A DNA stretch of 64,000 bases from Leucosporidium creatinivorum. Lineage: Eukaryota > Basidiomycota > Microbotryomycetes > Leucosporidiales > Leucosporidiaceae. Of the stretch, positions 23,792 to 52,111 are shown piece by piece (positions within the stretch are counted from its first letter, which is position 1; each line of letters starts with the position of its first letter). Below the pieces are notes generated by a model, which did not search any database, had not been told where the DNA came from, and was given only the letters and a program-made list of their open reading frames with translations. The translations under genes were made by a program, and so were the position numbers. The stretch lies in the NCBI GenBank assembly GCA_001600635.1, contig BCKL01000031.1, forward strand, positions 160,650 to 224,649, read 5' to 3'.

Positions 23792-24872
23792 TCAAGACGG
23801 GGTGGTAGTCGACTTGGGGTTCTTCTTGCACCTGTATCGCGAGAAAGGTCAGTTTCGGCTCGGCGATGATCAAAAAAAGCGGGTGAAGGACGAACCAGCT
23901 GCGGTGGTGAGGCCAGTCCTCCTTTTGATGCGATTTGGAGCAATAGTAGTCGACCTTGCAGCCCGCGCACTGCAGTAGGTGCTTCCTCTCACCACACACG
24001 GAGCAGTAAGCTCCCGTGCGGCAAAGAATGCCCGCTGCGAATAGCACCTTGTCCTCCAGCTTCCCACTCTCCTCCAAAGCGCGCCTCTGCGACTGAGATT
24101 CCTTGACCCTCTGAATCGAATTCGACGTCGTGTCCGCCAGCAGCGACTTGGAATGGGCGGGCTTGGCTTGCTGCACCAAGGCGGCTTTGATGCCGTCTCT
24201 CGCCATGTCGGAGAGAANGGGGAGGCGCCCGATCNTTTGAGTACCNTCGTACTGGCACCAGGTCCTCGTGATCTTGCCGGTCTCCCTCGAAGCCGTGGCG
24301 ACCGCTTCGACGTTGACGACCGCCCTCAGCGCCAGGGTGCGCGTGTCGCCGAGGGGNACGAAGGTCGGGACTTGGGTGGTGGGGTAGTAGAGAATGACTT
24401 TGCCGCCGGGCTGTACCGCGAAGAGCTTGGCTTTGCCCATTTTCTCGTAGCGGTAGGTGAAGGAGAGGCGACGAGAAGCGCCGAGGATGGGCAGGGCGGC
24501 TTCGAGCGCCGGGAAGGGAGCTCCGCTTTCGTCAATCATCATCAACTCAATCTTGAGGTCCTTCTGACCGTCCACGAGGAATTCGAGCTGCTCCGCGTAT
24601 TGCTGGTTCAACACTTGGTCTACGCCGAGAAGAGAGACGCTGATGCGCCGAGTTGCCTCGCAGTAAGCGATGAGGGGGGCCGATTGGAAGAGAGAGATAA
24701 AGCTAGAGATGGGGGATGTCGGCAGGAGGAAGGCGTAGCAGTAGGAGGCGAGGACGAGGCTGTTGTGGGGGTCGACGCTGAAGCGCGCTACTTCTGGCGG
24801 GACGAAGGTAGGCGCTGGTTGCAACATAGGGTCGCCTTTTTGTACGTAGTAGTGCTCGATCGTGATAGCCAT
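23792..24872 (-). CDS. MYND zinc-finger protein, A-type (pair 1)
   Basis: A protein of about 338 residues from MAITIEHYYVQKGDPM to CKKNPKSTTTPS, with TGA at 23792-23794. The N-terminal 280 residues match no family I recognise but are shared by the other MYND genes here. The C-terminus is a MYND finger: CSVCGERKHLLQCAGC, then YYCSKSHQKEDWPHHRSW. A 63-bp intron (23833-23895) splits the Trp codon just before the final ligand Cys. The usual MYND sixth Cys is His here (SKSHQ). A likely 3' UTR intron follows the stop. Four Ns fall in the coding region. It is divergently paired with the gene at 25346. MYND fingers bind proline-rich partner motifs; the role here is unknown. Closest relatives in the window are the genes at 42110 and 49448. 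Confidence 0.82.
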
Positions 24873-25345
24873 CTGTAGGCGAGCTAGTACAGTCGAGCTG
24901 TCGAGACGAAAGCGAGCAAGATGAGGGAGGAGGACATGGGGCGAAATCCAGCTCGGCTCGCCTCTTCCCTTCCCGCTTCTCATCGCTCTCTCTCATCTCG
25001 TCGCTCTCAGCTTTCGACTCGTCTACAGGACTACACAAGCTCAGCTACAGCTCGGCTACGCTTCTACACCCTTTCACCACTTTCCCTAAAAACCCCACGC
25101 TCGGGCGCTGAAACACGTCGACGACGGACAAGTGAGCTCGAACCGCTGCTACTATTGAGAAGTCAACAAGGCGAGTCCAAGTCGAGCTTCAGGTGAGTAG
25201 TCAGGTGAGTAGAAGGAGTGAGAGAGCAGAGGAGGAGAGGTGCAGCCGAGGAGCTAACCCTCCTGCAAGCGCAGACCGAGCTTTCCCTCCTCCGAGTCCT
25301 CGCGTTCCAACTCTCTTTCCTTCGACCCTCTCCCACGCTCCCGCC
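24873..25345. promoter_or_regulatory. Shared divergent intergenic region, MYND pair 1
   Basis: 473 bp between two start codons facing away from each other. It matches the intergenic regions of pair 2 (41616-42109, inverted) and pair 3 (50554-51009) over most of its length. Conserved blocks include a segment near 25095-25135 (GCGCTGAAACACGTCGA) and a run before AAGTCAACAAG. The B side carries an apparent 5' UTR intron (GTGAGTAG near 25193 to GCGCAG near 25273). The bidirectional promoter role is inferred from position and conservation. Confidence 0.65.
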
Positions 25346-26419
25346 ATGCCCATCAAGGTAGAGCAAACTACACTCGACAAGAGTAACCCCCTCATCCGTC
25401 CTCGGCACAACTTCGACGGGGTCCGCGGCGGCGCGACCCATCTCGCCGACCTACCTCATTACTCGTTCGCGCTCATGGACGAGAGTTTCTACCGCGACGG
25501 CGTAGTCTTCAGTACCGGAGGATACCTCGTCACTACCATCGCCCACTGTGAGGAGAACAAGAGGATCAGCGTTTGCTCCGCCTCGACGAGTCTCGCCGAT
25601 TTCTCCAGCTACGCCGAGCAGCTTCGGTGGCTCTCGGAGGAGTTGCCGGCCGCTTCGGTCAACATTCTCGTCATTCACTCTTCCGACCTACCTCGAAACC
25701 TCCATCCGGGTCGTGGCACCCCCCTCGCTGAACCTCTCGTTCACCGCAAAGCCTCGGCCGACGAATTCCACTCTCATCGAGGTTCGCAAGGTCACTGCGC
25801 TCACCCGGATCTCGACCCTTCCTCCCGGATACGTCTACAACGCCGGATCCACCATTCCCTTGGACGACATGTCCTTCGTGGGGACTCGTTGGATGGCTCT
25901 CCTCGGTATCGAAGCTGCCTCGCATGAGGTGCAAGGCCAAGGCTCGCTGTCGCCTGTGATGTCGTACGATGGTACTAGGCGATCGGTACACCTTCCTCAC
26001 TTATCGGACAAGGCGCAAACGGCAGTCAAGGTTGCGTGGGAGAAGGCTCAACTTGCGAAAGGTGGGAGTAGCGGAGGGCTCGACGGCGATGGGGGCTCGG
26101 TCGACGATGCGGAGACCATTAGCATGGGCAGTGCTTACGGCCGTCTACTCGCGATGATAGATGGGCTGCAGGGCCTCGGTCCCTACTGCGCCGTGTGTGG
26201 AAGCGACGGCGGTCTTCTCAGATGCTCGGGCTGCGGTTGGGCGAGCTACTGCTCGCCGATGCACCAGCGTGACGACTGGAAGCATCACCGTAGCTGGTGA
26301 GTAGCTGTTCCCATTCATCTGGAGTCGGCTCGGCCTTCCTGTTCTCGTCATCTCGAGCTCGGCGCTGATCGTTTTCTCCGCGCAGGTGCAAGAAGAACCC
26401 CAAAAACGTCACTCAGTGA
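25346..26419 (+). pseudogene. MYND zinc-finger gene, B-type (pair 1), one frameshift
   Basis: It starts MPIKVEQTTLDKSNPL at 25346 and is strongly similar to the gene at 51010. The frame runs cleanly to about 25675 (VNILVIHSS), where it moves by one base. The second frame continues from IRVVAPPSLNLSF to the finger CAVCGSDGGLLRCSGC, YCSPMHQRDDWKHHRSW. Compared with its paralogue a few codons are also missing there. A final intron precedes CKKNPKNVTQ and TGA at 26417-26419, again splitting Trp just before the last Cys. No GT-AG intron can explain the frame change, so it is a pseudogene or a sequence error. The A partner is at 24872. Confidence 0.75.
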
Positions 26420-26835
26420 GACGGGTGTTGTGGCGCAGGATCCAGCAGGGGTGAGCTCTAGATCCCCGCCGACAAGAGACAAAGTTGACCCTCTTGCGTC
26501 CTGCAGAGTGACGGCGCTCGGCGAACGACGTGAGCAGGGGCTGGACCGAGATGGTTCACGTCGCGCTTTGAATCGACACCAGATTACTCTTCAGACTCTA
26601 AGACCAACCAGCGAGGCCGCGAGGTGGCTCTGAGTCGGCGAATGAAGCAGCGGGAGAGGCTCGACGAACCGCTCGGCGCAAGAGCAGAGGCTCGATTCAA
26701 GCTCAAGGCTCGCTGGCCCACTTGAATAGCTTCTCTCGCCTCATCAGAACGTGGATAGCACAGAACTGCATGTGTAGATATTGCGACCCTTTAATCTTAC
26801 AATACGACATCGCTCGAGATCGACTCGCCGCCCGT
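26420..26835. other. Intergenic, no gene seen
   Basis: The 3' side of the MYND B gene, including a likely 3' UTR intron (about 26452-26506, with GTTGACC before CTGCAG), then unremarkable sequence up to the convergent reductase stop. Confidence 0.4.
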
Positions 26836-28562
26836 CTAAAGCTTCGTGTCGCCGCTTCCGATCTTGACGACAATCTTGCCAGTGTTGACTCCCTCGAAAA
26901 GACCCATCAGTCCCTCCACGCAGTTCTCCATGCCGATGAGACGGTGCTCGCGGATCTTGAGCTGGCCCGAACTGACCCAGGAGGCGAGCTCGGCTTTGAG
27001 GGAGAAAGCTGGAGTCAGCCAGAGGTAGGGTAAACAGTAGTAAAGAAGGAGCTCACCATCCGCCTCGTGGTATCTCTTGGCATAATCGAACACGATGAAA
27101 CTGCTCGGCGTCGACCAATCAGCTCAAGCGGCGAGGAGAGGAAACGGCGGCTGAGCTTACCCGTGGATCTTGGCGCACTGGGAGATAAGGTTAAGGTAGC
27201 CTTGTAGGCCGCGGGGAGAAGGGTCGTTGTAGGCGCTGTGCAGGGAGGAGTGGAAGAGGACGGGAGGGAGGAGGCGAGCGAGGGGGCGAGGAGGAGGAGA
27301 GCGAGGAGTGAACAAGTCAGCGCCGCGCGATGAGAACTGACATCGCTCAAGTACACACGAGATGGCTCCGCAGACTGTTAGCAAGGCGAACGGGAGGAAG
27401 GGCGAGGCGGGTCAGCAAGACCGCTCGACGAGCACCGAAAACGAAGTCAGGACTCACGAGCAATCCTGGCGAACTTCTTCATGCGAGTAAGGGAAAAGTC
27501 GAGGATCTCTCCACCGACGTTGTCGAACATCTGCGCGCGGCAAGAACTCGGTCAGCGCTGACGAACTCGGTGAAGGCGAGCGAAGCCAAAGCCTACAGCA
27601 TCAAAGTATCCGACGGATTCCCTAAAGTTCTTCTTGAAGTCCTTGTCCTTGTAGTCGAGGGCCGCGTCAACTCCCAACTCCTCCTTGAGCCAACGGCACT
27701 TGTCGGCTCCTCCGGCGACGGCGATGACCTTGCAGCCCTTAATCTTGGCGATTTGGCAGGCCTACATGAAGCGAGGTGGTTGACATGAAGAAAAGAGCGA
27801 TGCAGAGGTTAGTGTGCTGGCCGTCTCGAGGTGAGCTAGACCCGGAAGGACTCACGACGCTACCAACAGCTCCAGCAGCTCCAGTCACCACTACAGTCTC
27901 CCCACTCTTGATCTTGCAAATATCGAGCAGCCCCCAGTACGCGGTCTGTCCAGGCATTCCGAGAGTTCCGAGGTAGTAGGAAGGCAAGACCTTGTCGGAC
28001 ACCCTGCGACGAAGCTCGGTTAGCTCGGCGACGACTTCTCCCGCTCCCTCAAACTCACTCGATCTTCTGCACCTCCTTCAAGGTGACCTTGGCGTACTCT
28101 TGCCATCCAGTGAGCGTGGAGACCCAGTCACCGACCTTCAGTCCCTTCTTCTGAGCATGAGCGGTCGACTCGGCGTCCGAGGCGATGGAGACGAGTCGGC
28201 CAACTCCTCCTGCGCGCATGACATCGTTGATAGCGACGGGAGCGATGTAGGAGCGCGTAGCATTGAGCCATCCTATTCGAGTGCAAATACGAGTAAGTCA
28301 GCTTGTGAAGCGCTAAAGACGGACATACCGTCGCCGAACCGAAAAGCGGGAGTTGAAACTTACCACGCATGGCAGGGTCCAGGCTGACCCACTCGGTCTT
28401 GACCAAGCACTCTCCCTTGGCCAAGTCCTTGTCGACGGGAGCGCTCTTCTCGAGCAGGAAGGTGCCCTTGCCCGAGTTGAGGTCGGGCGAGATAGCCGCC
28501 TTCGGTCGGTTGATGAGGACGATGCGAGATTGCGTCGAGGGAGTAGGAGGGATCGCAGGCAT
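26836..28562 (-). CDS. Medium-chain reductase, alkenal/prostaglandin-reductase (CurA) type
   Basis: An NADP(H)-dependent oxidoreductase of the zinc-free MDR branch, probably reducing activated C=C bonds of enals or enones in the cytosol. The N-terminus MPAIPPTPSTQSRIVLINRP and TEWVSLDPAMRGW match the substrate-binding domain; GTLGMPGQTAYWGLLDI and VVVTGAAGAVGSV form the nucleotide-binding start (AxxGxxGxx), followed by KIKGCKVIAVAGGADKCRW. FDNVGGEILD, FVFDYAKRYHEA and KIREHRLIGMENCVEGLMG complete the fold, ending with TAG at 26836-26838. About six introns. I chose ATG at 28560-28562 because it gives the family's usual length; an in-frame ATG at 28652-28654 would add 31 Pro/Ser-rich residues. 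It is convergent with the MYND B gene. Confidence 0.88.
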
Positions 28563-28654
28563 GTTGTCGAGGTCTGGCGATTGCGGCGGGGTGTGTAGCG
28601 AAGTAGGGGGCGGTGGGCAAGGCGACGGGAGCGGCAAAGACGATTCGTCGGACA

Positions 28655-30256
28655 TGAGGGCGTTGAAGGAAAGCAGGACGAAAGAGAAGGAAGCAAAGAG
28701 CAAAAGGTCAGCTCGATGCCCCTCTAATAGCTGTGGGCGCTGGCGCGCTCCCCGGCGCCGAACTAGAGTCTGGCCTGCGCTTTCGTCCCGGCTCCCGCTG
28801 GAGTTACGACGACCCGGCGTATATCTCATCAACCACCCTCCTGCCCGCCTGACCGATTGCTGTGCATAATAGCGAGCGATAACGAGCTCATTTCACCTTT
28901 TCGTAGGAGGTTGGGCGGAGGAGGCGACGGAGGGCTGTTGTTCTGAGGGCGCGTGGAGGGTCAGTCAGGTGCTCTAGTGGACTACAGAGCACAGCTGAGC
29001 AGCTTACCGAGATTGAGGAGCTGTAGCGAGGTAGCTACTGCTCTGTGAGATGTGCGAGACGAAGCCAAGCCTTAGGCTCTCGTCGCCAGCTCACCTCGTC
29101 GAGCCGCCTACTCGAGGAGCCGAGCCGCTTCGGGGCCAAGTCAGCGAGATGCGAAGACGGCCAGAGTCCGTCCAGTCTCGTCCACGGTACCACCCTTTCT
29201 GACTTTGAGTATGGCACCCGAGTCGCTTGAGTAGCCGGCGAAGGAGAGGTGCAGGACATGCAGAAGCAGACGTCCGAGCACTGCGCCGAGCTCCGAGCCC
29301 AAGCGCTTGCGGGCATGGGGTCTGTGTTCAGTAGTGAGATTCGGCTTGGGAAACCTAGGCGTTTTCCGCACCTTGAGAAAATGATTGGGAGGACGAGAAA
29401 CAAGCCGTCTTCCCTTGGGAAAGGGCTGAGAAGACGGCTCGCGGACTTGTCGACCTCGCTCGCTCGCTTCGCCACCACTCTCCTCCTCCCTCTTCTCTGG
29501 CTTCTCTGCTCTGCTGGCTCTTCGTGTAGGAGATTGCTCTTCTCGCCGTGTCTAGTAGAGCACTCTGCTCCCCCCTACAGATCCGCTGCCAAGGTTCCAA
29601 CTCGGTTCCTTCTCCCCTTCTCCTTCTTCTCCCTTGACCTGAGTGGCTACTGGGCGGTAAGTAGAGCTAGCTCGCGGGTCAGAAGTGAGCCAGAGTAGCT
29701 GATGAGCCCTTTGTCCAACAGCACAAATCATCGGCTCGACGTATCGAGCTAAAGGTGAGCTCGAGTGGCGCTCAGCTTCGCTTGCTGCTGCTGACTTCCT
29801 TCTCACAAGTCTGCTGCTCGTTCTCGCTTCCTGCACGTCGACGAGTACATGTAGTGGTATAGTGAGCCCCTCTTCGACTACAGCAGGGGAGCCTCAAAGG
29901 GGGAGGAGAGCCAGTGAAGCCGCGCCGAGACGAGGGAGGAGCTGCAGGGCTTCAGAGGCAGCTTTGCGCACCGAGACAGCAGGGGGTTGGAAGCGCTGGG
30001 TCGGCTGCATCAGTTCTAGATTATTTCATAGCTGTAGCTGAGTAGGGAGAGCGAGGAGAGCAGCGAGAAGCAAGCTGGGAATCGAGCTGGGATAACGGCT
30101 CGCTCCCCTTGGAAAACGGCTAGAGAACCGCTCTCTCTGCTTTCTCTTCGGTAGACTGCTCGCTTCCCAACCCGTCTGCCTAACTCAAAAACGGCTTGGA
30201 TAACATCTCTTTTCCCACCCGTTATCCCTTGGGAAAACTACCCCGTTAGCTAGCTA
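28655..30256. other. Gene-poor stretch at left edge of repeat island
   Basis: About 1.6 kb in which I find no supportable gene. Open frames on both strands (for example 29035-29478 minus and 29249-29698 plus) lack motifs or plausible splicing. A perfect 10-bp inverted repeat, AGCCGTCTTC and GAAGACGGCT, lies at 29403-29412 and 29430-29439. Short words such as CTTGGGAAA and AAAACGGCT recur between 29.4 and 30.24 kb, hinting at decayed repeats. Confidence 0.4.
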
Positions 30257-30720
30257 GCATGAGGTGCCGGTCTTGCAGCGGAGGGACTTTGTGCTGGGTA
30301 GGAGTCACTACACTATCATAGAAAGCGGGTCCCTGCCTTACTGGAAGTGCAGGTGATCCCTGAGGAGGGAGCACTGAAGGAGCAGATCACTCCTCGCTCG
30401 CCGACGCCGAGCAGGAAGCAGATTGTCTGGTTTGACAACAGCAATGGTGGCTCACGGCGAGCTTTTCAGAGATCATCTACAGTCACCGGGTGACCCTTCA
30501 GGTTGTTGTTGAAGGGAGAGCAGGAGATACGCTGGCACCAATTGAGCAGCTAAGGCAAGTCGGGTTACGAGCTCGGACCGCAATCTGACATTGCCAGCTT
30601 TGCAAGTCTAGTATGCCACTCCGGCTCGGCCTCGCAGCGCTTTTTTCGGCAAGGGCTTTGTGGCCTAGTGGCAAGGCGTCGGTTTCCGAGAACGGACAAG
30701 CCGGAGATCGCGGGTTCGAG
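30257..30720 (+). repeat. 464-bp duplicated unit, copy 1
   Basis: A direct repeat of 34330-34793 with a constant offset of 4073 bp. I find three mismatches and no gaps by eye. It begins GCATGAGGTGCCGG and ends inside the T-loop of a tRNA-Arg-like sequence (GGTTCGAG). No recognisable protein. The near identity indicates a very recent duplication or gene conversion. It may be part of a mobile element; the class is unknown. Confidence 0.85.
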
Positions 30721-30734
30721 CCCCGCCTCAGTCA
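30654..30734 (+). tRNA. tRNA-Arg(CCG)-like, intron-containing, probably pseudogene
   Basis: Box A-like TGGCCTAGTGG and box B GGTTCGAGCCC are present. The T arm GCGGG/CCCGC is perfect, and the anticodon arm TCGGT/GCCGG gives loop TTCCGA plus A, with anticodon CCG at 30686-30688 and a putative 9-nt intron at 30690-30698. A pol III T-run follows at 30736-30740. The 5' acceptor strand (GGCTTTG) pairs poorly with the 3' strand (CTCAGTC); GACTGAG would be expected. The 5' flank and acceptor belong to a repeat, so a tRNA gene seems to have been overwritten on its 5' side. Confidence 0.6.
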
Positions 30735-31661
30735 TCTTTTTGCCATTCCCACTCCTTGTACATCACCCTTTTGCACCCCCAGTCCGCCTCTTCCGTTCCC
30801 CTCCTCTTGCGCAGTCAGTCCGGAGCTCAAGGCTCCTTCTGAAGGCCTATGTGCTCCACTGAACAACTTCTATCCCACACCAAGGAGTAGAAGCTGGCAT
30901 GTTGGCTTCTCTTGCAGTACAGTACAAGCTGGCTCTGGGTAGGCCTCACCGAGCACCAGCGAGGCTGAGCTCCCCCTCCCTCCCGGGTGAGCTCTGCTAG
31001 TCCTGCTGGCTAGCGCCTGGTTTGGTGCATGGTTAGAGTGGTTCTATTAGTCACAGAGGTAGCTCTTGGACCACACCAGCTGGCTTCAGGTCTCGCCAAG
31101 TGTGGTGACCAACCCAGCTCCGAGCTATTGGCGCTCGGTCAACTCTTGCTGCTCCCCCTCTGACACTGCAGGGAGTCTGAAAGTGACACCAGTAGTCATC
31201 TCAACAACACCTAGTGGCTACCATGTTGCAGGAGCTGTCGGCGGCTCAGCAGCTTCCGTCCGCATGCCCAACGACATCCCTAAAGTTTAACCGAGCCAGG
31301 TCGCTTTCAATTCGTATCGTCGACAAGGACGCTCGCACCCGAGAACTTCCACTTGTGGTACAAGACAATGCTCAGGACCTATGTGCTCTACCTCAACTAC
31401 TACACGGGAGAGGGTGAGGGCGTAGCAAGGCCTCAAGCCAGCTCGGAGCAAGTAGGCAATTGACAAGCAAGGAAAGCTGTTCGCCGTCATCCACGGTGCC
31501 TTCACGCAGACGGCCGCCATGGCCATCCCCACCCCCGCGAGGACAGCCAAGGATGTCCTCGACACCCTCAAGAACCAGTACAATCCGGCTCCCTTGGGCA
31601 CCGTCACCGCCGAGGTCACTTGGCAACTTGCCTGCTTGACCCCAACTTCGAGGGGAGTAAC
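30735..31661. other. Repeat-island spacer, no intact gene
   Basis: Apart from the coding-like pieces at 31310-31620, I see only low-complexity and unassigned sequence here. Confidence 0.35.
31310..31620 (+). other. Coding-like exon fragments of unknown origin
   Basis: Two stretches read like real exons: one containing NFHLWYKTMLRTYVLYLNYY (about 31345-31410), and one containing GKLFAVIHGAFTQTAAMAIP followed by ARTAKDVLDTLKNQYNP (about 31470-31620). A possible GTGAGG...ACAAG intron lies between them (about 31413-31467). I do not recognise the protein. No start, stop or further exons can be joined, and the 0.98-kb repeat begins 40 bp later, so this may be a gene remnant cut by that insertion or a captured fragment. 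Confidence 0.35.
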
Positions 31662-33791: not shown

Positions 33792-33824
33792 CTATGCTGG
33801 GATGATGCCAATGCTGGCCTTGTT

Positions 33825-34097: not shown

Positions 34098-34329
34098 TAA
34101 ATACTAACTGCGCTTTGGACCGGGTTAAGGCGGTGGCACTGAAGCACCACACAAATCGGGGGGCGGGGCGCGGGGCAACCTAAAAAGAGAAGGCAGGCAA
34201 CCACTACTCTGCACCTTAAAGCATTAAAGCAGAGTAGATGAGTCTGTGTCAGGGGTAGAGCATCAATGCTGAGAGCACCAAGAGAATAAGGCTCGAGCGG
34301 TGCGCCGAGCTCGAATGCCGCAAGCTGAG

Positions 34330-40497: not shown

Positions 40498-41615
40498 CTA
40501 TTTACGGTTCTCCTTGCACCTGTTAGTGGTGGTGAGAGTGATCAGCTGTCGTCTCGGCCATGATGGAGAAGGGCGGAGACTCGCCAGTCGCGATGGTGCG
40601 GCCAATCCTGCTTTTGGTGCGCCGCCGAACAGTAAAACTCACTCATGCATGCTCCGCATTTGAAGAGCCCATCCTCCGACGCGCAGATGATGCACGCAGC
40701 GAGCCCGCCGACGTAGTTGTCGATCAGCAGCTTGACGCGTTGCCCAGCTTTTCTGATCTCGAAGCTGGTCCTCCCTCTGGAGCGCGAACTGGCGAGTGAA
40801 AAGGTCGTCAATGAAGGCCATCTCGTTGGAAGGGACGGCGCGGGTTCCGCATGAGAAGTGGGCGCGAGCTCCGCTTGCTCGGCGCGAGAGCAGCAGCGAG
40901 CGGGCGAGGGCCGAGATGACGGGGAGGGTCTGAGATTCTTGGTCTCCTTCGAATTGGCGCCAGTAGATGTACTTGTGACTGCCTGTAGCAGTCTGTACCT
41001 GCTGGTCGAGACCAAGGAGGATGCCGGCGTTGATGAACAGGGCGTCGTGGCGGTAGACTTGGAGCGATGGTCGGTCTGAGGGGCATAGGAGGATGGTGAT
41101 GGCGCCTGTTCCTTTCTGCACACTGAAGTAGTGCGCACTGGTCTTGACGAAGCAGGGGAATTTAAGTCGAAGAGTGGAATCCTCGGCTTCCATCGACTGG
41201 CGAACCGCTTGTACCAACGCCGAAGCCGCCGAGCTGGCCAGCGTGTCCACGTTTGGGACGCGGTGAATGACGACGAAGTCGACCGAAGCTCCTGTCCTTC
41301 CATTTACGATGTATCCGACTCCCACTCGGCAGACCTCAAGGAAGTTCTGAGAGGGGGGGGCACTCGCCTGAGACGAAGACGAATGACCTCGAGGTGGCGT
41401 TGCAATGAGCGACGACGGCGTTGCTGAAGAAGGTGCCGCTAATCCCTCCTACAGGAGCTGTGGGCGCCAGCAGCGCGAAGCTGTTGTGAGCGAGTGGGAG
41501 ATGATCATCGAGGGTGAGGAGGTATTAGGCCGGGGTGCCCGGCTCTCGCGGCACAGAGCTGACGACGAACTCCTTGTCACGGTCGAGAGTGCGCGAGGTG
41601 ATTTGGATGGGCATG
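40498..41615 (-). pseudogene. MYND zinc-finger gene, B-type (pair 2), multiply disrupted
   Basis: It starts MPIQITSRTLDRDKEFVVSS at 41615. A TAA at 41526-41528 follows GTPA within 30 codons, and a further frame change occurs near the G run at about 41347. The longest clean frame is 41325 to about 40740 (VDFVVIHRVPNVDTLASSAA to QFALQREDQ). Another frame change precedes the finger CIICASEDGLFKCGAC, FYCSAAHQKQDWPHHRDW. The last intron appears to use a GC donor (GCGAGT), then CKENRK and TAG at 40498-40500. It is most like the B genes at 25346 and 51010, and is divergent from the A gene at 42110, so this pair is inverted relative to the other two. Confidence 0.72.
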
Positions 41616-42109
41616 GCGAGAGCTGAGGGAGGGTCGACACGGGTGAAGAGCTCAGCGAGCGGTGCGAAATGAAGGGAAAGCTCGGCCTGCGCTGGCGAGA
41701 GGGTCAGCTACTGGATTACAGCTCTTCACCTCTGCTCGTTCTTTCAATCTACTCACCTGTAGCTCGACTTGCACTCACCTTGTTGACTTCTCAGCAGCAG
41801 CAGCGGTTCGAGCTCCCTTGTCCGTCCTCGACGTGTTTCAGCGCCCGAGCGTCGAGCTTTGGGAAGGTGGTGGAAAGGTGTAGAGCTGTAGTCGAGCTGT
41901 AGCTGTGCTTCTTTTGGTACTGTACGAGAGTCGAAAGCTGAGAGCGACGAGAAGAGCGAGAGCGATGAAGCGGGAGGGAAAGCGGCTCGAGCCGAGTTGG
42001 ATTTCGTTCTCTTGTCCTCCTCAGATCAAGCAGCAGCAGCAGCAGCAGCAGCCCTCATCTTGCTCGCTTCTCGTCTCGACAGCTCGAACCCACTAGGACT
42101 ACAGCTCTA
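41616..42109. promoter_or_regulatory. Shared divergent intergenic region, MYND pair 2 (inverted)
   Basis: 494 bp whose reverse complement aligns with 24873-25345 and 50554-51009. The block GCGCTGAAACACGTCGA and its neighbours are conserved. It has gained a CAG tract on the A side. Probable bidirectional promoter with a 5' UTR intron on the B side. Confidence 0.65.
42031..42051 (+). repeat. CAG microsatellite, 7 units
   Basis: Seven perfect CAG units in the 5' leader of the A-type MYND gene, absent from the matching leaders of the other two cassettes. Confidence 0.9.
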
Positions 42110-43199
42110 ATGAACGCTGAAGCTGCNACTAAGATCCACCACCACTACATCGAAGCAGGCGACCCTCTCCTCGCTGCCTCGACTTCGCCCGACCCAGCTG
42201 GCACGCTCGTCTTTCCCGAGTCGCTTCAGCTCAACGAGTACTGCTACGCCGTCCTCAAGCCCGAGTCAAGCATCAAGCGCATCGTAGGAAGACTGAGCTC
42301 CATCCTTATTGTCATGCACTGCAAGGAGACGAAGCGCACGACGGTCGAGCTGTTTGGCTCTGGCTACGCCTTGTCGGAGCGTTACATCGAACCAGTCAAG
42401 GAGCTCCTTGCCGCTGGGAAAGGCTCGGTGTACGCTTTGCTCGCTCAGTTGCCTGAAGGCCCCCACCCCAACAACATTCCGACCGTCCAGCAGCTCTTCA
42501 GCAAGCAGGACTTGCCCCTCACTTCCCTCGACAACGTCGACGCTAAGGGCGCTCAGATCTTTTCGGTCGAGGGTGGCACGGGAGCTGGGACTTTCTACCA
42601 CGCTACCTCGTCCCTCCCCACCCTCTCGCTTTCCACCGCCGACCGCTTCACCACCCTTTTCGACCTTCTGATAAAGCTGGAGAGGGCGACTACTGTGGCG
42701 ATGCTTGCTGGCCAAGAGCGACGCCTCTGGAACCAGTATAGTGGCGACGAGTCCCGCCGCCTTCCCACGATCTTCGACCAGGCGCACATGTACATCATGG
42801 CCGCTCGCCNTCCCACCGCCGAGGACGAGGACGACGGAGGCTTCCCCCCCTTCCCCATCACTGAGATGTTCGGAATGAGGATGGCGGCAGGCGCTCATGC
42901 GATCATCAAAATGTTTCGCGAGGACAAAAGGCCGGGAAACGCCAGCATGGCGGCCGCCGAGAAGATCGCCGAGCTGGGATTGTACTGCGCGGTGTGTGGG
43001 GAGCAGGATGACCTAATGAGGTGTTCCGGATGTAAGAAGGTGTACTTCTGCGGACAGGCGCATCAGAAGGACGCCTGGAAAGATCACGCCAACCTGTACG
43101 TGTGCCGAGCGACGGGGAAGTTCGATAGCTCGCCAATGACCTTTTCTTCAATTCGACAGGTGCAAGCAGCTTCGCAACAAGAACATCTGGAAGAAGTAG
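42110..43199 (+). CDS. MYND zinc-finger protein, A-type (pair 2)
   Basis: About 341 residues starting MNAEA, then KIHHHYIEAGDPLLAA, parallel to IEHYYVQKGDPML of the gene at 24872. The N-terminal 290 residues include LNEYCYAVLKPESSIKRIVG and LIVMHCKETKRTTVELFGSG. The finger is CAVCGEQDDLMRCSGC, then YFCGQAHQKDAWKDHANL. The last intron (GTACGT from 43096 to CAG at 43160) precedes CKQLRNKNIWKK with TAG at 43197-43199, supplying the final Cys. A 3' UTR intron is likely (about 43230-43300). Two Ns are in the frame. No disruption is seen, so it may be functional. Its divergent B partner is broken. Confidence 0.84.
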
Positions 43200-43743: not shown

Positions 43744-46699
43744 ATGACTCGCTCCCCACTTCCCCTCGTTCGGCTGCTGCTGTACAGCACAGTACATCGA
43801 CCACCACCTCGCCCTCCTCCGCTGTACCTCTTCAGCTCTTACAGCCGCCCTCTGAGTCGCCAGCTCTCGCAAAGCACGGCCCCACTTCAAGCTCAGGCCA
43901 AACCAGCTGTACCAGAGCAGCCAGCGCACCAAGAGATCATCTACATTCACCCTCATCTAGACTTGATGTCGCTCCCACCTTCGCTCTTACCCAACTGGCC
44001 TGTAGGGGAGCAGATGCACGTCCAAGGCTCGACCGGCTCTGCTTACGCTCTCACTCGGTGTGTGGCTTGTTCTGGTGCAGTGTAGGCGTCTTTGAGAGCT
44101 CAAGCTGACCCNCCCCTGCTGCCCTACTCCCCTACAGCCACTCCCTCAACAACTACTCGTGCTCCTGCCCCGCCTGGAAGTTTCAAAAGGGCCAGTCGAG
44201 CGAAGTGAGGACTTGCAAGCATCTGAGGGAGATGTTGGGCGATGCGTGAGTACTAGTGCGCGTGCTGGCTGGTACGGAAGCGTGGGCTTGGTCGGCTGCA
44301 GGCTCGCCGAGCTGAGATGAAGGCCGAAGAGGACGTTGACACGCGTTGGAAAAGCTGACCAGCGCGCGAGGAGAGCGCTGAGGGCTGTATAGCGACTGGT
44401 GAGGTCTAGCGACGCGTGGAGAACGGGTGGAGCGAGGTGCAGCTGAGCCAGGGCCTTCGTGGCGCGCTCGGCGAGGGCTGAAGCTCTTCGCTGGGCGGCC
44501 ACTTGTCCTCATGGGTCGGCTGCATCTCATCTCAGCAACAACAGAAGACCTGTGTTGCTCTCGATAAGGCCTAGAGCTGAGCTTCGACTCTGCGACCGAC
44601 TTGAACTGAGCTGAGCTCCGTCGGGGGCGGCTGCTCCATAGTGAGACCGACTTTGGCTACTAATGGGGTCTGAAGGTGCAGGGTGCACCATCAAGACGCC
44701 CCACCGTGCGCGTGTCATGTTGCAGAGCAGCCAGCAAGGTTGGACGAGCCAGGAAGCCGCGCTTTTGCTTGCTCGGCGCGGGCCAGCAGCTCGCCGCCGG
44801 TTGGCTGATACCATGAGGACCTGCCCTCTCGAGCTCAGACTGCCCTCGGCACTCCCTGTGACGTTGAGACGCANCGCTGACGCTCCTCTCTGCTCTCCTC
44901 CGCTTCTCTCTTGCCTCCTTCCTTCTCACCCTCGCCTCGTCTCCCCTCCCTCCTCCTTCGCGCCCTTTCACCCGCTCCTTTCGAAATAGACACGAGAACA
45001 CTCGCACCGGGACCGAGCCCCCCAAGGGAAAGAAGAAGGCGACCAAGAAGCGTCCCGCCGCCGCTGCTGGAGACGACGACGAGGTCGCTGCCCCTCCCAT
45101 CAAGAAGAAGGCCGCGCCGAGGAAGAAGAAGGTCGTTGATGAGGAGGATGGAGCTGCTACTGGAGGAGGAGCGCAGAGTGGATTCACGCCTCTGCTGCTC
45201 GCTCAGTCGTTCGANTTGGGCGGAAAGAAGGATCCCGAGGGCATGTGGGTCAGCGAGAAGCGTGAGTCGGCTGAGGTAGCGCATGTGGGCTGCTCGCTAA
45301 GTTCCATCATCTACTATCATACAGTCGACGGAGTGCGCGCTTACTGGGATGGGATCGACACCGTCTGGTCGCGTACGGGCAAGCGCTTCTCGGTGCCCAA
45401 GTTCTTCCTCGACCGTGAGTCCGGCCTCGTTCCCTTTCTGTCGCAGCTGCACGCTGACACCTTCTTTACGCCTCTGCTCCTCCTTCGCTTCCAATCAGGC
45501 CTCCCTCGCAACCACTCGCTCGACGGAGAGCTCTACCTCGGCCGCGACCGCTTCGACGAGACCTCGGGCATCGTTCGCACCACCAACACCAGCGAGGCGA
45601 GCGAGGCCAAGTGGAAGCAGATGAAGTTCATGGTGAGCTGAGAGCGTCGGCTTTGTCACCCTGGGTTTTTCAAGGCTAACCTCGGGTTTCGCTGCTTTAC
45701 CCTCCGCCTCCCTCACCTTTCGTCTCCTCGCCACCGTCACTCGTGACCCTCCTTTCCTTCCTCGCCGCGTCTCTGACAGGTCTTCGACATCCCCTCGATT
45801 GGCAATCAGTCCTTCGAAGCCCGTCTCCAACAACTCAACGCTCTCTTCCCCGCCGACAAGGAAGGACCCGTCCAAGTCGTCAAGCACGAGCTCTGCAAAG
45901 GCATCGAGGACCTCAACGAGAGGCTGACTGCGATTCAGAAGATCGACGGCGAGGGGTGAGTCGTCGAGCTGACTCGCTTCGGCGCTCGCTCCAGATCGCT
46001 GAGGCGGCGAGCCATTGTTGACTGGTTCCACCCCCCCTCTTCTCTACCTCTTCCTTCTTCTCTTCGNTCGACCACAGCCTCATGCTCCGCGTCGCCGGCT
46101 CCAAGTACGTCGGCAAGAGGGACAAGTCGCTCCTCAAGGTCAAGACGTTCTACGACGCCGAGGCCAAAGTCGTCGGCTACGAGCCTGGCAAGGTGCGCTG
46201 ATCTCCTGTCTCTTCCGCTTCGNTCNANNNCTGACNNNANTCNNCNCCNANACAGGGCAAGTANGCGCTCGTNACNGGATCCCTCATCNGCGAGATGGAG
46301 TCGGGCCAGCAGTTCAGCGTCGGCAGCGGCATGAGCGATGCGAGGAGGGCTGATCCGCCTCAGGTAGGTCCTTGTCTCCTTTTCCCAGCTTCTGCCGCTT
46401 TGCTCCCTCCTCGNNGACTCAGAACCGANCTGACCTCGTCTCCTTTGCCCTCGCCTTCTCGCCCGCCTTTCCTCCCTCGCTACTCGTCACACCGTCACCC
46501 TGCTGCCTCGCTCTCCTCCCTCGTCTGCCAAATCCCACAGCTCGGCGCCATCATCTCCTACCGCTTCCAAGAGCTCACCAAGGGCAANATCCCNCGCTTC
46601 CCCACCTTNGTCGGCGAGCGCGCCGANATGGATGCTCCCAAGGACTGCATCGTCAGGACTTCGATTGCGAGGGCCNACACGGGTGCTNGGGATGAGTGA
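43744..46699 (+). CDS. SWIM zinc finger fused to small ATP-dependent DNA ligase
   Basis: A nucleic-acid ligase that seals nicks using ATP. The Arg-rich N-terminus (MTRSPLPLVRLLLYSTVHRP) looks like a mitochondrial presequence. A SWIM finger follows: CSCPAWKFQKGQSSEVRTC then KH (C-x-C...C-x-H). After a Lys/Asp-rich linker come the ligase motifs: motif I KLDGVRAYWDG (KxDG, intron inside the Lys-Leu junction), LDGELYLGRD (motif III), EGLMLRVAGSKYVGKR (motif IV) and LLKVKTF (motif V). An OB-fold tail (SGQQFSVGSGMSDARR) ends with TGA at 46697-46699. The catalytic part resembles small bacterial-type ligases rather than fungal LIG1 or LIG4. The intron after the SWIM domain (about 44246-44988, 743 bp) is far longer than the others here. 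Many Ns occur at 46.06-46.69 kb. Confidence 0.85.
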
Positions 46700-47044
46700 G
46701 GGTTTAGGAGGAGAGGTCCTGAGGCCGCTTGTTTCGCTTGATGAGGACGTTCGCCGAGGCTCGGTCGCTTGATGTGGGTGGAGCCGAGGGGACGATGCGT
46801 GTAGATACCTGGTAGTGATCAGTAGCAGTAGCATACCCCACTCTCTAGTCGTACAGCGCTGAGCTCGCCAGCGAATGAGAGAAGCGAGCCGAGGGAGACT
46901 GTGGAGCCGAGCGCCGAACTTTACTCCGCGCGTTTCAGTAGCCTGGGAAGTCTTGCCAGCTCGCCAGCAGGCCGCGATGGCGGATTATTACTGATTGATT
47001 TAGTCGAGGCCAGCTCTAAGGTCTATCTACACCATCTCTAGGAC
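46700..47044. other. Intergenic, convergent 3' ends
   Basis: 345 bp between the ligase stop and the stop of the minus-strand gene. Nothing recognisable. Confidence 0.4.
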
Positions 47045-49149
47045 TCAGAAACTCGCTCGGCGTCGTCGCTTCGGCCCTCCCGCCAGTCTCCCAATCTCGT
47101 CCCTCTCATCTCCAGATCCACGCTTCCTCTTGCTCGCCGCCTGTTCCCTCTTCTCCACCTCTGCTCTCCAAGCCACCTTCCCCCACTTACTCCCCTCCAC
47201 CACCTCGTTCCACCTCCAAGCCTCCGCCTCGACCTCGGCGAAAGAGGGTTGCAGCTTCTCGGCGAGCATGCGCTCAAACGCTCGGACCGTCGACTCGAGA
47301 GCCGAGTAAACCAAGAGCGTCTTCCGAGAAGAGCCGCCGCCACCAGCGCCCACGAGAATTGACGGCCACTTCACGACGTCGGGGAGGAGGTTGGGCGAGA
47401 GGACGGAGGAGAGGGTCTCGTTGGCCTTGTTTAGGGGGAGAGATGGAGATGATCCGAAGGCGTCGAATTAGGGATAAGGGGAGTGGAGCGGGGTCGCTGG
47501 TGAGTGGGGAGAGAGTGCACGCCGCTCGCGCTAGCAGGGGTTCGGCGCGAGCTGCTTCGGCGGGAGGGGAGCAAGGCGGCGGCGGTGGAGGTGAGATTGC
47601 TGTGGGTGGTGGTGGAGGAGGTGGTGGTGGAGCAGCACTTGGCGGAAGGGCAGGAGGCGGTGGTGTAGAGGCGGGAGTGATTGGCAGCGAGGAAGTAATT
47701 GGCGGCGGGACGACGAGCGTGAAGGAAGGCTTGACAGCGGTGACGGATGATGTGGGCAATGGCGGAGGAGGAGGTGGTAAAATGATAAGAGGGAGTCGAG
47801 GAAGTGAGGCGGCCTGCTGAGCCGGAAGCGGGAGGCGATCACTTGACGAAGCGCCCGGCGGCGGGGCGGCGGTCGATGGGCGTTCAGGCGACGGTGCAGG
47901 ATTCAGAGGAGCTTGAGATATCGCTACAGTTCCGTAAGGTAATGCTCCGTTTGGTACATCAGTCCGTGCCGGCTTTGATTGCCTCGGCGGTGGTGAGGGT
48001 TGAGTCGGCCGCTGCCTCGGTCTCGGCGGTGAAGGCATCAACGCTTCCCGGCGTCGCTCGTCCTCGGATGGAAGGATGAGCTCGTCCAGCCTGTTACGCC
48101 TCGACGTCCACTCGCGATGAGCGAGGTATCGAGTCTTAAGGTCGTTGGAAAGGAAGGCGATGGCGGTGAGTTGAGAGGTAGAAACGCTTCGAGTGTCTGG
48201 GGGCGAGCCAGTACTTCGCCCCCCAGGTGAGAGGGATGTCCTCCGAGGTCAAATGCTGTGTGTGAGATGTGGGAACGGTCAGCAGTCGTCTAAGAGGGTC
48301 TACGATGCTCGGACCCGGCTCACCTCGAAGCGGGTCAAGCGAGGATCCGAAGGACGAGGAGCTTTGAGTCGCAGCTGCTTGTACCCGTACACGTTCTGCA
48401 GCAGCTCTACGATATGACAGTCCTCTGCTTCTTCCAGGTAGTCCGTCAGGCTTTCAAAGCCGAGGTTCCGCCAATCCTTGCCGAAATCCAAAATCTGGTT
48501 GCTCGTATCCCTCCAGGATGGATCCTTGTCGCCTTCTTTCCATAGCTTGTCTAACGCGAGAGTAAGCGGTCGCCATTTGGGGCCGAGAAGGAAGTTCCGG
48601 TAACTGTAGGCTGCCTGCCTGGCCGAGAAAGTTGCATAGGCCGCATCGCGCTTGTCGGCCGTACAGTCGGGATGGAAAGGAGTAAGAACGAGTTGCAGGG
48701 TGGTGAGTTGAGCCCAGTCTTTCGACCAAGTAGGCAGAGCCCAGTTGAAGCGAGTGCGAAGGAAGTCGAGAGGGGGAGAGGTCGGAGGGGAGTTTGGATG
48801 GCAGCAGCTCCCTCTGCAGTCGAACCGAGGCATGGAGGTAGTTATTTCGGCGCCTGCGATACAAGATGATCAGCAGTGACTCGCGAAAGAGAACGGACCT
48901 CGAGGGCCCGCACTTGCTTCCTGCTCATGGAGGGCGAGGAGAAGGTGCAGAGCGTACCCAGCTCCTCAAGCTGCTGAAAAGTCTTCCGGACTTTGGTCCT
49001 GCTCAAGCGAGGCGAGAAAGGGAAGACAAAGAGCAGCACACAAACGAGGAAGAAGGGCAAAAGGCGCAAGCTTCGCCTGAGCGGGGGTCGAGCCGCTTGA
49101 GGAGTAGTGGGAGGAGTGCCGGAGTAGAGGAGAGGGCGTTCACATGCAT
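47045..49149 (-). CDS. Unrecognised protein with proline-rich middle region
   Basis: Coding is clear in pieces: MHVNALSSTPALLPLLLKRL (start chosen at 49149), TKVRKTFQQLEEL, FNWALPTWSKDWAQLTTLQL, YRNFLLGPKWRPLTLALDKL, SLTDYLEEAEDCHIVELLQN, then EDIPLTWGAKYWLAP, LSNDLKTRYLAHREWTSRRN, a stretch of more than 100 residues of Pro/Ser (47.5-48.0 kb), and VRAFERMLAEKLQPSFAEVE with a basic tail ending RRRRASF and TGA at 47045-47047. I place introns near 48856-48960 and 48255-48328. Two frame changes (about 48.17 kb and before the last exon at about 47.43 kb) are not explained by splices I can place. The protein family is unknown; the basic tail suggests a nuclear protein. It could be a pseudogene if the frame changes are real. 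Confidence 0.6.
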
Positions 49150-49447
49150 CTGATGGCGTGCTAAGTCAGCTCTGGCGAGCGCTGCTGCTTTGTTCGCAAT
49201 TCTCGGCGATGACTTCGGCGCCTTCAATTCTCGGACGACGAGCTCGATGGTCTCAACAGCGCACACACACCGTTTCAGCGTGTCAGAAGCCTCCGCAGCA
49301 TCAAAAGCAAGCTCTTCGTCCGCTGCAGCAGCTTCTCGACTCGGTCGACCATCTGCTCGGCGAAGACGTTGAGAGCCGAGAGGGTCAGCTTCGGCTCGAG
49401 TCCTTCTCTTTGCGCGGGAGACGTACCTTTAGCTAAGCTCAGAGATC
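49150..49447. other. Spacer between unknown gene and MYND pair 3
   Basis: Contains the 3' flank of the A-type gene, homologous to 23690-23790. This includes a likely 3' UTR intron (donor side near 49427, CAG side near 49360), so the duplicated MYND unit extends past the stop codons. Confidence 0.45.
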
Positions 49448-50553
49448 TCAGATGGAAGCGGTAGTCGACTTCGGGTTCTTCTTGCACCTGTGCAGCGAGG
49501 AGGCGGGAAGGAAGGTCAGCTTTGGCGATCAAGGAAGGCAGGCGAGGAACGAACCAGCTGCGATGGCCCTTCCAGTCCTCCTTCTGATGCTCACGGCTAC
49601 AGTAGTACTCCCATCCGCATCCCGAGCACGTCAACAGTCCCTCGCGCTTCCCACAAATCGCACAAGCGTTCCCCGTCACAATCAGAGCGTTAGCCATGTC
49701 GATGGCTGTACTGGTGACGGGGGGAGCAGGAAGTCCCGCAGGCTCGAGAGCCCACTGCATCGCTTGCATGCGGTCCGCGAGGGTGCCTCCTTTCGTCCTC
49801 TTGCGACGGGTGAGCAACGCCGAGCGAGCTTCATCGCAGAGAGGCGGCAGGACCTTCGTCTCGTGGTCTCCACAATACTGCTCCCAGTAGAACGGTCGGA
49901 GGAACGCGTTGTCATCTTTCTCCCTTCGGATTCTCCCTTCGGACGTAGAGGTCGAAGCAGAGACGGGTGACGGTGAGCAAGGAGAAGGGGTCGAGGTTGG
50001 TGATGTAGACGACCGAGACGTGCGATGGGCCGTGGAGCAAGGCGATCGCGCCGGTGGCTTTGCTGAGGGTGAAAGCGAGAGGTCCTTTTGCCGGGCTGGG
50101 GAGGACTTGGATGTGCGACGAGCTGAGCTGCTGCTCGAGGAGCGGGATGGGAGTCTGCCTCAAGTCGCCCGGGAAGTTGACCAAAGTCATCGAGCCGACG
50201 AGGACCACAATGTCCAGAGCGCTCCCGCTGTTGTCGATGCAGTACTTGCCTCGTTCGATACACGCTTTGAGAAGCTCGGGGGTGACAAAGGCGAGGTTGT
50301 GCCCCGGCGAGAGGAAGAAGGAGCGCCTCGTCTCGGAGCAATGGCCGATGATGACTCCCGACATGAGCGTACCACTGAAGCCTAGCACGGGAGCATCGGG
50401 CGAAAGCTTACCCCAGCATCCATCTCCTACAGGCTAGTAGCCGGGCAGCGAGATCTGGTTGGTCTGCCCGCTGAACAGAGGACTGTCGGGAAGGGGCGCG
50501 ATGGAGGAGAAGGTGCTGCTAGGCAGAGTACGATGCTCGATGATAATTCTCAT
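49448..50553 (-). pseudogene. MYND zinc-finger gene, A-type (pair 3), two disruptions
   Basis: It starts MRIIIEHRTLPSSTFSSIAP at 50553. An in-frame TAG follows ISLPGY (about 50432-50434). The frame then continues VLGFSGTLMSGVIIGHCSET to LCFDLYVRREN. A 13-bp tandem duplication (TTCTCCCTTCGGA, 49918-49930 and 49931-49943) shifts the frame by one. The rest reads LTRRKRTKGGTLADRMQAMQ to the finger CAICGKREGLLTCSGC, YYCSREHQKEDWKGHRSW. A last intron splits Trp before CKKNPKSTTASI with TGA at 49448-49450. It is the A counterpart of the gene at 24872 and divergent from the gene at 51010. Confidence 0.77.
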
Positions 50554-51009
50554 CCTGTGCTTTTTCCTGTAGCGAAGCGGGCGAGTCGAGAGAAAGCTTG
50601 AGACGACAGCGAGCAGGATGATGAAAAAACAACTCGGCTCGGCTTTCTTTCCCGCTTCATTGCTCTTGTCTCGTCTCGCCGCTCTCAGCTTTCGATTCGC
50701 CTACAGGACTACAGAAGCAAAGCTACAGCTCGACTACAGCTCTACACCCTCCCATCACCTCCCTCAAAGCTCGACGCTCAGGCGCTGAAACACGTCGAGG
50801 ACGGACGAAGGAGCTCGAACCGCTGCTGCTGCTGAGAAGCAACAAGGCGAGTCAAGGCTGAGTTACAGGTGAGTAGAAGGAAATGATTGAGCAGAGCTGG
50901 AGAGCTGTAGGGGAGTAGCTGACCGTCTCGCAAGCGCCGACCGAGCTTCCCCTCTCCCGAGCCCTCCTTCGCCTTTCCCTTCTTGCGACCCTCTCCTCCG
51001 CTTCCCACT
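50554..51009. promoter_or_regulatory. Shared divergent intergenic region, MYND pair 3
   Basis: 456 bp aligning with 24873-25345 in the same orientation. Shared blocks include CTACAGGACTACA, GCGCTGAAACACGTCGA and AGCTCGAACCGCTGCT. A 5' UTR intron is likely on the B side (GTGAGTAG near 50870, GCTGACC near 50919). Confidence 0.65.
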
Positions 51010-52111
51010 ATGCCCATCACCGTCGAGCGAGCTACACTGGACGAAACGGACCCCCTCCTTTGCTCCCGCCACAATACCGACGGACGTCGCGGCGGCGCGA
51101 CCCATCTCGCCAACCTCCCCCTCCACTCCTTCGCTCTCATGGACGAGAGCTTCTATCGCGACGGCGTGGTATTTGCCACCGGAAAAGCTCTCTTCACTAC
51201 TATCGCTTACTGCGAGGAGTCAAAGCGGATCAGCGTGTGCAACCTCTCGACAACCATCGCCGATTTTTCGAGCTACGCCGAGCAGCTGGCTTGGCTTTCG
51301 AAAGAATCGGATGCGCCCTCGGTTGAGATGCTGGTCATACACTCGTCTGTGAAACCCCCTCCTGCGAGCTTTCAGAACTCGGTCCGCGCTGTAGCGCCCC
51401 CATCCCTTCGTCTCTCCTTCGCCATCGAGCTTCGACCGCCGAGCGCAACGCTCATCCAAGTTCGCAAGATCACCGCGCTCACCCGGCTTTTCCCCATCCC
51501 TCCCGGATACATCTACAACGCCGGATCCACCATCCTCCCGGACGACCTCTTCTCTGTCGGGACTCGGGGGATCGGGCTGCTCGCTATCGAATCTGCCTCG
51601 CGTGAGGTACATGGCCAAGGCGCTCTATCACCCATCATGGCGTAAGATGGTACCAGGCCATCGGCTCGTCTCCCGCAGCTGTCAAACGAAGCGCAGACGG
51701 CCGTCAAGCTCGCTTGGGAGAGAGCTCAGCGTGCGAAGGGTGGGAATTGTGAAGGGCTCCACAGCGACGGTGTGGTCGACAACGCGGGCACCAGCACTGC
51801 CTCTCGTAGTATAATCGCTCTGACCGATGGGATGCAGCGCCTTGGCCCTTTTTGTGCTGTGTGCGGCAACGATACTGAGCCTCTCCGATGCTCGGGCTGC
51901 GGGTGGGCGACGTACTGCACGCCGATGCATCAGCGCGAGGACTGGGAACATCACCGTGGCTGGTGAGATAATGTCTTGAAGCGAGCTGGACTCGGCTTAG
52001 CGGTCGTCTCGTCACTTCTCGGCGAGTTGGACTTGGAGCTCGGTGCTGACCCCTCCGTTTCTTCGGCGCGTCTGCAGGTGCAAGAAGAACCGCAATCAGA
52101 GCTCGTCGTAG
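51010..52111 (+). pseudogene. MYND zinc-finger gene, B-type (pair 3), premature stop
   Basis: It starts MPITVERATLDETDPLLCSR at 51010 and is the closest relative of the gene at 25346 (shared HSFALMDESFYRDGVVFATG). TAA at 51643-51645 follows ALSPIMA; the paralogue has TAC (Tyr) there. The same frame then continues DGTRPSARLPQLSNEAQTAV to the finger CAVCGNDTEPLRCSGC, YCTPMHQREDWEHHRGW. The last intron splits Trp before CKKNRNQSSS with TAG at 52109-52111. A single base change explains the break, so decay is recent. Confidence 0.77.

What the first reader, a model, noticed from the sequence alone, without database searches (positions are those of the whole stretch)
23792..52111. Three divergent MYND-gene cassettes sharing one intergenic module
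Pairs at 24872/25346, 41615/42110 and 50553/51010 are head to head. Each has one A-type (HYY..GDPML start) and one B-type (MPI..TLD start) gene. The 456-494 bp between the starts is conserved across all three, including non-coding blocks such as GCGCTGAAACACGTCGA. The middle pair is inverted. Co-duplication of two genes with their shared control region suggests that the pair is the unit and that A and B may work together. The N-terminal domain of about 280 residues is not a family I know.
Basis: partly seen in the sequence, partly recalled or inferred. Interest (0 to 1): 0.78.

Follow-up and report, generated by a model that had tools for sequence, protein, structure and literature searches.

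The report
Fungal twin-gene cassettes that swap partners
A fungal chromosome carries many back-to-back pairs of related zinc-finger genes that share one switch region, and the two halves of the pairs appear to have been repeatedly swapped at that switch, much as in gene systems that diversify recognition proteins.

Summary
The three window pairs belong to 10 head-to-head pairs (8 on this contig, 2 on another; ATG-to-ATG gap 448-494 bp) of one family of at least 33 genes. The roughly 330-bp intergenic core is polar and 78-92% identical among the eight pairs of this contig. Its 14-mer CGCTSAAACACGTC occurs 14 times in 27.7 Mb, every time upstream of a family gene. Half-cassettes have been exchanged at the shared intergenic region. 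B genes are not one clade. The unknown N-terminal domain is predicted, for an A-type and a B-clade gene separately, to have the fold of N-terminal asparagine amidohydrolase NTAN1 and the bacterial deamidase CheD, but the NTAN1 nucleophile Cys is absent in 20 of 20 proteins examined. Thirteen of 32 copies carry apparent frameshifts or stops. Best reading: a diversifying array of NTAN1-fold/MYND proteins; a recognition role is inferred. A second MYND family on another contig shows similar divergent pairing.

The parts
23792..24872 (-). A1 (pair P3, HYY type): NTAN1-fold domain + C-terminal MYND; big exon then ~40-nt last exon (CKKNPKSTTTPS*). Open; has N bases
   Evidence: MYND
24948..25288 (.). 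shared polar intergenic core of pair P3 (A side left)
25106..25119 (+). family-exclusive element CGCTGAAACACGTC
   Evidence: C31:185755-185768
25346..26419 (+). B1 (pair P3, alpha type), one frameshift near residue 115
40498..41615 (-). B2 (pair P4, gamma type), one stop and at least two frameshifts
41671..42000 (.). shared core of pair P4 (inverted relative to P3 and P5)
41687..41756 (-). inferred 5'-UTR intron of the B-side transcript (donor GTGAGT, branch GCTGAC, acceptor GCAG)
   Evidence: sequence only; no RNA evidence
41830..41843 (-). family-exclusive element CGCTGAAACACGTC
   Evidence: C31:202479-202492
42110..43199 (+). A2 (pair P4, HHHY type), open reading frame; lies in a 4.5-kb stretch 96% identical to P6 (C31:230490-234968)
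49448..50553 (-). A3 (pair P5, delta type), one stop and one frameshift; near copy in P7
50630..50953 (.). shared core of pair P5
50783..50796 (+). family-exclusive element CGCTGAAACACGTC
   Evidence: C31:211432-211445
51010..52111 (+). B3 (pair P5, alpha type), one in-frame stop near residue 212
62157..63104 (+). solitary family member (B clade), open through the MYND; its last exon was not identified; used for the full-length structure model

Best explanation
This is an array of half-cassettes. Each cassette is two divergent genes of one family around a polar core of about 330 bp that holds a family-exclusive element (CGCTSAAACACGTC) and, on the B side, an apparent 5'-UTR intron. Shown by sequence: the pairing, the polarity, the exclusivity of the element, and the exchange of A and B halves around the core. 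Inferred: the core is a shared bidirectional promoter whose sequence identity also lets ectopic crossover, inversion or gene conversion join any A half to any B half; that keeps every gene under the same control while reshuffling partners. Shown by prediction: the proteins have an NTAN1/CheD-like domain without the NTAN1 catalytic Cys, then a MYND finger. Inferred: they are non-enzymatic (or altered) binding modules plus a MYND docking finger, co-expressed as a varied repertoire, perhaps for recognition such as allorecognition.
Against: Thirteen of 32 copies carry apparent lesions and only 2 of 10 pairs have both genes open, which suits plain birth-and-death better than obligate A-B function. 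Thirteen of 33 genes are not in pairs and seven of these show no clear core. In P2/P3 the HYY copies share the gene but not a near-identical leader or core, and the best single breakpoints of P1/P2, P3/P6 and P2/P3 lie at columns 168, 212 and 498, so not every exchange maps to the middle of the core. The C-terminal piece of alpha P3/P6 has dN/dS 0.70. No RNA, population or relative genomes were available, so bidirectional promoter, co-expression, recombination rate and recognition are inferred. Models have moderate confidence (pLDDT 68 and 70), and sequence profiles did not find NTAN1.
Confidence: 0.6

Rival explanations
1. Ordinary birth-and-death of a tandem family. The promoter is conserved by purifying selection, partner changes are accidental by-products of ectopic recombination, and the two genes of a pair have no joint function.
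For: Many apparently broken copies (13 of 32); solitary members keep the core (5 solitary genes aligned, and a sixth, 181887, by the element); partners are exchangeable.
Against: The tight gap (448-494 bp in 10 of 10 pairs) and the constant side of each repeated gene type, and a different family on C6 with similar A/B pairing in the six pairs fetched, suggest that the arrangement itself is kept.
Confidence: 0.3
2. One reading: A and B are obligate partners duplicated together with their control region.
For: Ten pairs with conserved intergenic regions.
Against: Near-identical A genes have unrelated B genes and the reverse; the B side is not a clade (AU p 7e-41).
Confidence: 0.05
3. Assembly artefact: collapsed repeats and misjoins inside the core made false partners, and indel errors made the frameshifts.
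For: N bases at the same places in near-identical copies; breakpoints lie in repeated DNA.
Against: A misjoin can exchange the two copies but cannot easily give one A type two different partners, because both copies are present and differ (P4/P6 96% over 4.5 kb). Several gene types on two contigs show it.
Confidence: 0.06
4. The N-terminal domain is still an active amidase with a displaced catalytic Cys: the near-invariant C-x-x-T-x-R motif.
For: Cys of that motif in 19 of 20; its Thr and Arg are invariant and its Cys nearly so in the 15 sequences of alignment A2.
Against: The motif lies about 6-7 residues from where NTAN1 Cys75 is expected; no Cys in the two candidate windows in 20 of 20; one open member has Ser in the motif.
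Confidence: 0.1

Closest known systems
ves1-alpha/ves1-beta divergent pairs of Babesia bovis (PMC4066756, passages read)
   Same: multi-copy family in divergent pairs, shared intergenic promoter, exchange between copies by gene conversion
   Different: surface antigens of a parasite thought to be expressed one locus at a time; here NTAN1-fold/MYND proteins in a fungus, a family-exclusive 14-mer, no evidence on expression
HD1/HD2 homeodomain pairs of basidiomycete mating loci (PMC5100862, passages read)
   Same: divergent pairs, several redundant copies; in that paper one sublocus has only an Hd2 gene
   Different: the only Homeobox_KN match and the STE3 matches of this genome are on other contigs; that paper saw no recombination between Hd1 and Hd2 inside a pair, whereas here exchange inside pairs is the main feature
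NTAN1, N-terminal asparagine amidohydrolase (PMC7022378, passages read; PDB 6a0e-6a0i)
   Same: predicted fold over nearly the whole NTAN1 chain for the full-length model
   Different: no Cys75 equivalent, no PF14736 match, fused to MYND
het-Va/het-Vb allorecognition genes of Podospora anserina (PMC9262711, passages read)
   Same: two-gene incompatibility locus in which one product ends in a C-terminal MYND
   Different: het-Va has a SET methyltransferase domain; no homology or function shown here
MYND copy-number variation in Microbotryomycetes (PMC4469406, PMC10662464, passages read)
   Same: PF01753 copy number varies widely; Rhodotorula mean 24.7, SD 15.1
   Different: the passages I read give counts only, no pairing or domain architecture

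Membership tests
zf-MYND | Pfam PF01753 over its cut-off and full set of ligands | tested here: met
   (all 32 used copies listed as over the cut-off); the last Cys comes from the small second exon (all six genes of the window pairs). Exception: P6 B has lost a ligand
NTAN1 amidohydrolase | NTAN1 fold incl. appended C-terminal region | tested here: met
NTAN1 amidohydrolase | catalytic Cys75 | tested here: not met
   no Cys at -5..-8 or -16..-20 of the family motif in 20 of 20 proteins; registers by hand and by MAFFT, not from a residue-level structural alignment
NTAN1 amidohydrolase | catalytic His92 | tested here: inconclusive
   depends on register; His of the HC motif in 14 of 20 under one register, no conserved His under the other
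NTAN1 amidohydrolase | Pfam PF14736 match | tested here: not met
   no PF14736 among the matches at E<=1; no match in the genome
Bidirectional-promoter gene pair | head-to-head starts under 1 kb apart | tested here: met
   10 pairs, 448-494 bp
Bidirectional-promoter gene pair | both genes transcribed from it | not testable with these tools
   no RNA data
HD mating-type locus | homeodomain genes in the pairs | tested here: not met
   the one Homeobox_KN match at E<=0.001 is on C24 and the STE3 matches are on C25, none on C31
ves1-like diversifying locus | mosaicism by exchange between copies | tested here: met
ves1-like diversifying locus | heterodimer and single active expression site | not testable with these tools
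   needs protein and RNA work

The most novel reading that the evidence does not exclude
The core is at once a bidirectional promoter and a dedicated exchange joint: recombination starts at or beside the family-exclusive CGCTSAAACACGTC element, so that any A half can be joined to any B half without loss of regulation. This would give the fungus a combinatorial repertoire of paired pseudo-deamidase/MYND recognition proteins, a fungal counterpart of parasite antigen-pair diversification.
Probability: 0.2. Interest if true: 0.87.

Novelty: new variant of a known kind. Interest (0 to 1): 0.62.

Why it matters
MYND gene number varies widely in the Rhodotorula group (mean 24.7, SD 15.1 in PMC10662464), and my searches listed no explanation. 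This gives the N-terminal domain of such a family a predicted fold, shows how the family is organised and how it changes, and offers a case where partner exchange can be followed base by base. If the exchanges are recent and differ between strains, it would be a new fungal recognition or diversification system; if not, it is still a clear case of recombination around a shared intergenic region in a gene family.

Tried and rejected
Rejected: (1) mating-type locus: HD and STE3 matches are on C24 and C25. (2) A hidden bZIP exon in the core of P9/P10, suggested by a basic stretch in one frame: no Pfam match at E<=1 for the P10 and P1 upstream frames; indels in the C31 cores are not all multiples of three. 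(3) A known RNA in the core: no Rfam match at E<=1 in window 24700-25500. (4) Ste12-type site TGAAACA (a label recalled, from no call) as the functional motif: present in the eight C31 pair cores and in solitary 106614 and 76123, absent in P9, P10, 154365, 197848 and 168370. (5) Predicted ORFs beside solitary genes as partners: of those looked at, only the bZIP gene beside 168370 (with its copy beside 181887) proved a recognisable protein, and it lies on the same strand, not head to head.

Led nowhere: sequence-profile search of the PDB with the N-terminal domain, profile alignment to NTAN1, the search for related loci. Rows dropped: the alpha N-piece row had a frame error and is not used; C31:272437, C31y:76123 and C31:201236 were left out of the N-domain list, and 15 of the 29 listed sequences went into A2. 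C10:282813 and most MYND hits on other contigs were not examined. One search labelled 20 copies intact; one search showed that 246070 is not, so 19. Lesions of 272437 and 76123 rest on weak alignments (scores 186 and 210). My notebook note says the 5'-UTR intron is in 8 of 8 B sides; the script found it in 6 of 8, P3 has it by eye, and P5 has lost the acceptor AG. A Foldseek PDB search with the second model was not run; only VIA-align's second look was.
Full report
What is there. The window is C31:160650-224649 of a 27.7-Mb fungal genome in 63 contigs. A scan for zf-MYND gave 88 matches. I examined 32 of them in full as one family with MYND at the C-terminus: all 21 on C31, all 7 on C11, 2 of 3 on C10 and 2 of 2 on C44. 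A 33rd member, whose MYND end is not among the 88, lies at C31:228400-229293. The usual gene model is one exon of about 320 codons, a phase-2 intron inside the last MYND motif, and a tiny last exon that begins with the final zinc-ligand Cys (CKKNRK-like, then stop); this last exon is found in all six genes of the window pairs and in many other copies.

Pairs. Twenty of the 33 genes form 10 head-to-head pairs: P1-P8 on C31 (P3, P4, P5 are the finding's pairs) and P9, P10 on C11. ATG-to-ATG gaps are 480, 451, 473, 494, 456, 489, 469, 448, 466 and 475 bp. Of the 13 solitary genes, six carry the core or its element upstream, on the A side: 106614, 154365, 76123, 197848 and 168370 by the core, and 181887 by the 14-mer with a weak core match (E 0.001). 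The other seven show no clear core.

The core. Aligned with the A gene to the left, the eight C31 intergenic regions share a block of about 330 bp; mean pairwise identity per 60 columns is 0.80-0.83 in four windows, 0.67-0.68 in the next two towards B, and 0.34-0.55 in the flanks and coding ends. Pair-by-pair core identity is 0.78-0.92. The block is polar: each gene type that occurs in more than one pair (HYY, HHHY, delta, alpha, beta, gamma) always sits on the same side of it; the A-side gene of P8 is assigned by position only. A DNA search of the whole genome with the P4 core found 11 places: the eight C31 pairs, two solitary genes and P9. The 14-mer CGCTSAAACACGTC has 14 exact matches in the genome, all upstream of family genes; the reversed control pattern has 4. 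P8 and 168370 carry near forms. On the B side there is a plausible 5'-UTR intron: donor, GCTRAY branch and acceptor found by script in 6 of 8 pairs with length 69-71; P3 shows it by eye and P5 has lost the acceptor AG. This rests on sequence alone.

Partner exchange. The protein tree and DNA comparison give these combinations, A side x B side: P1 delta' x beta; P2 HYY x beta; P3 HYY x alpha; P4 HHHY x gamma; P5 delta x alpha; P6 HHHY x alpha; P7 delta x gamma; P8 a divergent gene x alpha'; P9 58947 x 61273; P10 101116 x 98775. Repeats of one A type are 84-96% identical over the aligned DNA (97% in the HYY and HHHY coding parts), but the match ends in the core, at its far edge, or at the partner's first codons. 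P4/P6: 96% over 4.5 kb, ending at the partner's start codon; in the alignment they are identical for 428 columns, which ends 8 columns after the GCGCTGAAACACGTCGA block, then 58%. P5/P7: 99% up to column 478, then 48%. P1/P2 and P3/P6 show the mirror image: near-identity on the B side with unrelated A genes; their best single breakpoints (columns 168 and 212) lie just outside the A end of the core, because the core is alike in any case, and for P2/P3 the best breakpoint is column 498 although the leader next to the HYY start is already different. So the middle of the core is well supported as joint only for P4/P6 and P5/P7. Trees of the two halves of the core reject each other (AU p 3e-50 and 1e-7); with eight short sequences the exact numbers should not be leaned on. 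P9 and P10 repeat the pattern on another contig: sister B genes, unrelated A genes, cores 90% identical. The solitary genes 197848 and 168370, which are not close relatives, have cores 81% identical. Among pairs, core similarity therefore follows location, not gene descent (82% within C31, 58% between C31 and C11 pairs); solitary C31 cores are 50-77% identical to the C31 pairs. Side and descent also part: 101116, 106614 and 197848 belong to the B clade but sit on the A side, and 154365 is sister to the B-side beta genes yet sits on the A side. Crossover between two inverted cores would invert the stretch between them and exchange partners, which would also account for the mixed orientations (P2, P4, P8 inverted); this is a model, not a result.

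Broken copies. Frameshift-aware alignment found stops or frameshifts in 12 of 32 copies, at different places; four control copies showed none. Two of the 12 (272437, 76123) rest on weak alignments. A 13th, gamma of P7, is open but its middle third is read in another frame. Both genes are open in 2 of 10 pairs (P2, P10), one in 6, none in 2. Near-identical A copies have dN/dS 0.29 (HHHY) and 0.26 (HYY); beta has 0.52 with 0.14 in the MYND; the C-terminal piece of alpha has 0.70. Some lesions may be sequencing errors, so these counts are upper bounds on decay.

Function. The step from anatomy to function is inference. Shared promoter, varied N-terminal domains, a conserved docking finger, exchange of halves and many decaying copies together suggest a repertoire that binds varied targets. 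Podospora het-Va, an incompatibility protein with a C-terminal MYND, is a loose parallel (PMC9262711, passages). The HD mating loci argue against a strict analogy: there exchange within a pair was not seen (PMC5100862, passages). Babesia ves1 pairs are the closest in layout and in mosaicism (PMC4066756, passages).

A second case. On C6 a different MYND family, with MYND at the N-terminus, forms six head-to-head pairs among those I fetched, each with one MEAFK-type and one MATAA-type gene; the gap is 108-112 bp in four, and in Q2 and Q3 one start codon is unsure. The intergenic stretches, taken with 40 nt of coding on each side, are 86-92% identical, and each orientation occurs three times. Divergent A/B pairing thus exists in two MYND families of this genome.

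In print. Searches for MYND with head-to-head, with basidiomycete expansion, with Rhodotorula, with allorecognition, with gene clusters and with NTAN1 and for divergent pairs with gene conversion listed no report that I recognised as this arrangement or domain fusion; the library lacks most subscription journals, and I saw listings and, for seven papers, passages, plus passages of PMC7022378.

Noticed in passing
G000:C6 about 1.04-1.21 Mb (L035-L040): A second MYND family (N-terminal MYND) in six head-to-head pairs, each MEAFK-type plus MATAA-type, with 86-92% identical intergenic stretches (40 nt of coding on each side included); three pairs in each orientation.
   Followed up: partly
L031:4149-4679 (-) and L029:1728-2258 (+), contig C11: Two 99% identical bZIP genes, each upstream of and on the same strand as a solitary MYND gene (168370, 181887).
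   Followed up: partly
C31:228290-229293 (L015): A 33rd family member, about 34% identical to the HYY type, not among the 88 listed MYND matches and without a clear core.
   Followed up: no
A-side gene 3' ends on C31, e.g. window 23568-23909: 3' ends (last intron, tiny exon, 3'-UTR) of different A types (delta', HYY, delta) are 67-77% identical over 240-290 bp although the protein bodies are far less alike; an apparent 3'-UTR intron recurs, judged by eye.
   Followed up: partly
window about 2999-13424: Genes that look like hybrid histidine kinases or response regulators, judged only by reading the predicted proteins.
   Followed up: no
L032 (C10:298001-306000): Two near-identical family members facing each other (299311+, 304387-), one broken: an inverted duplication without a clear core.
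   Followed up: no
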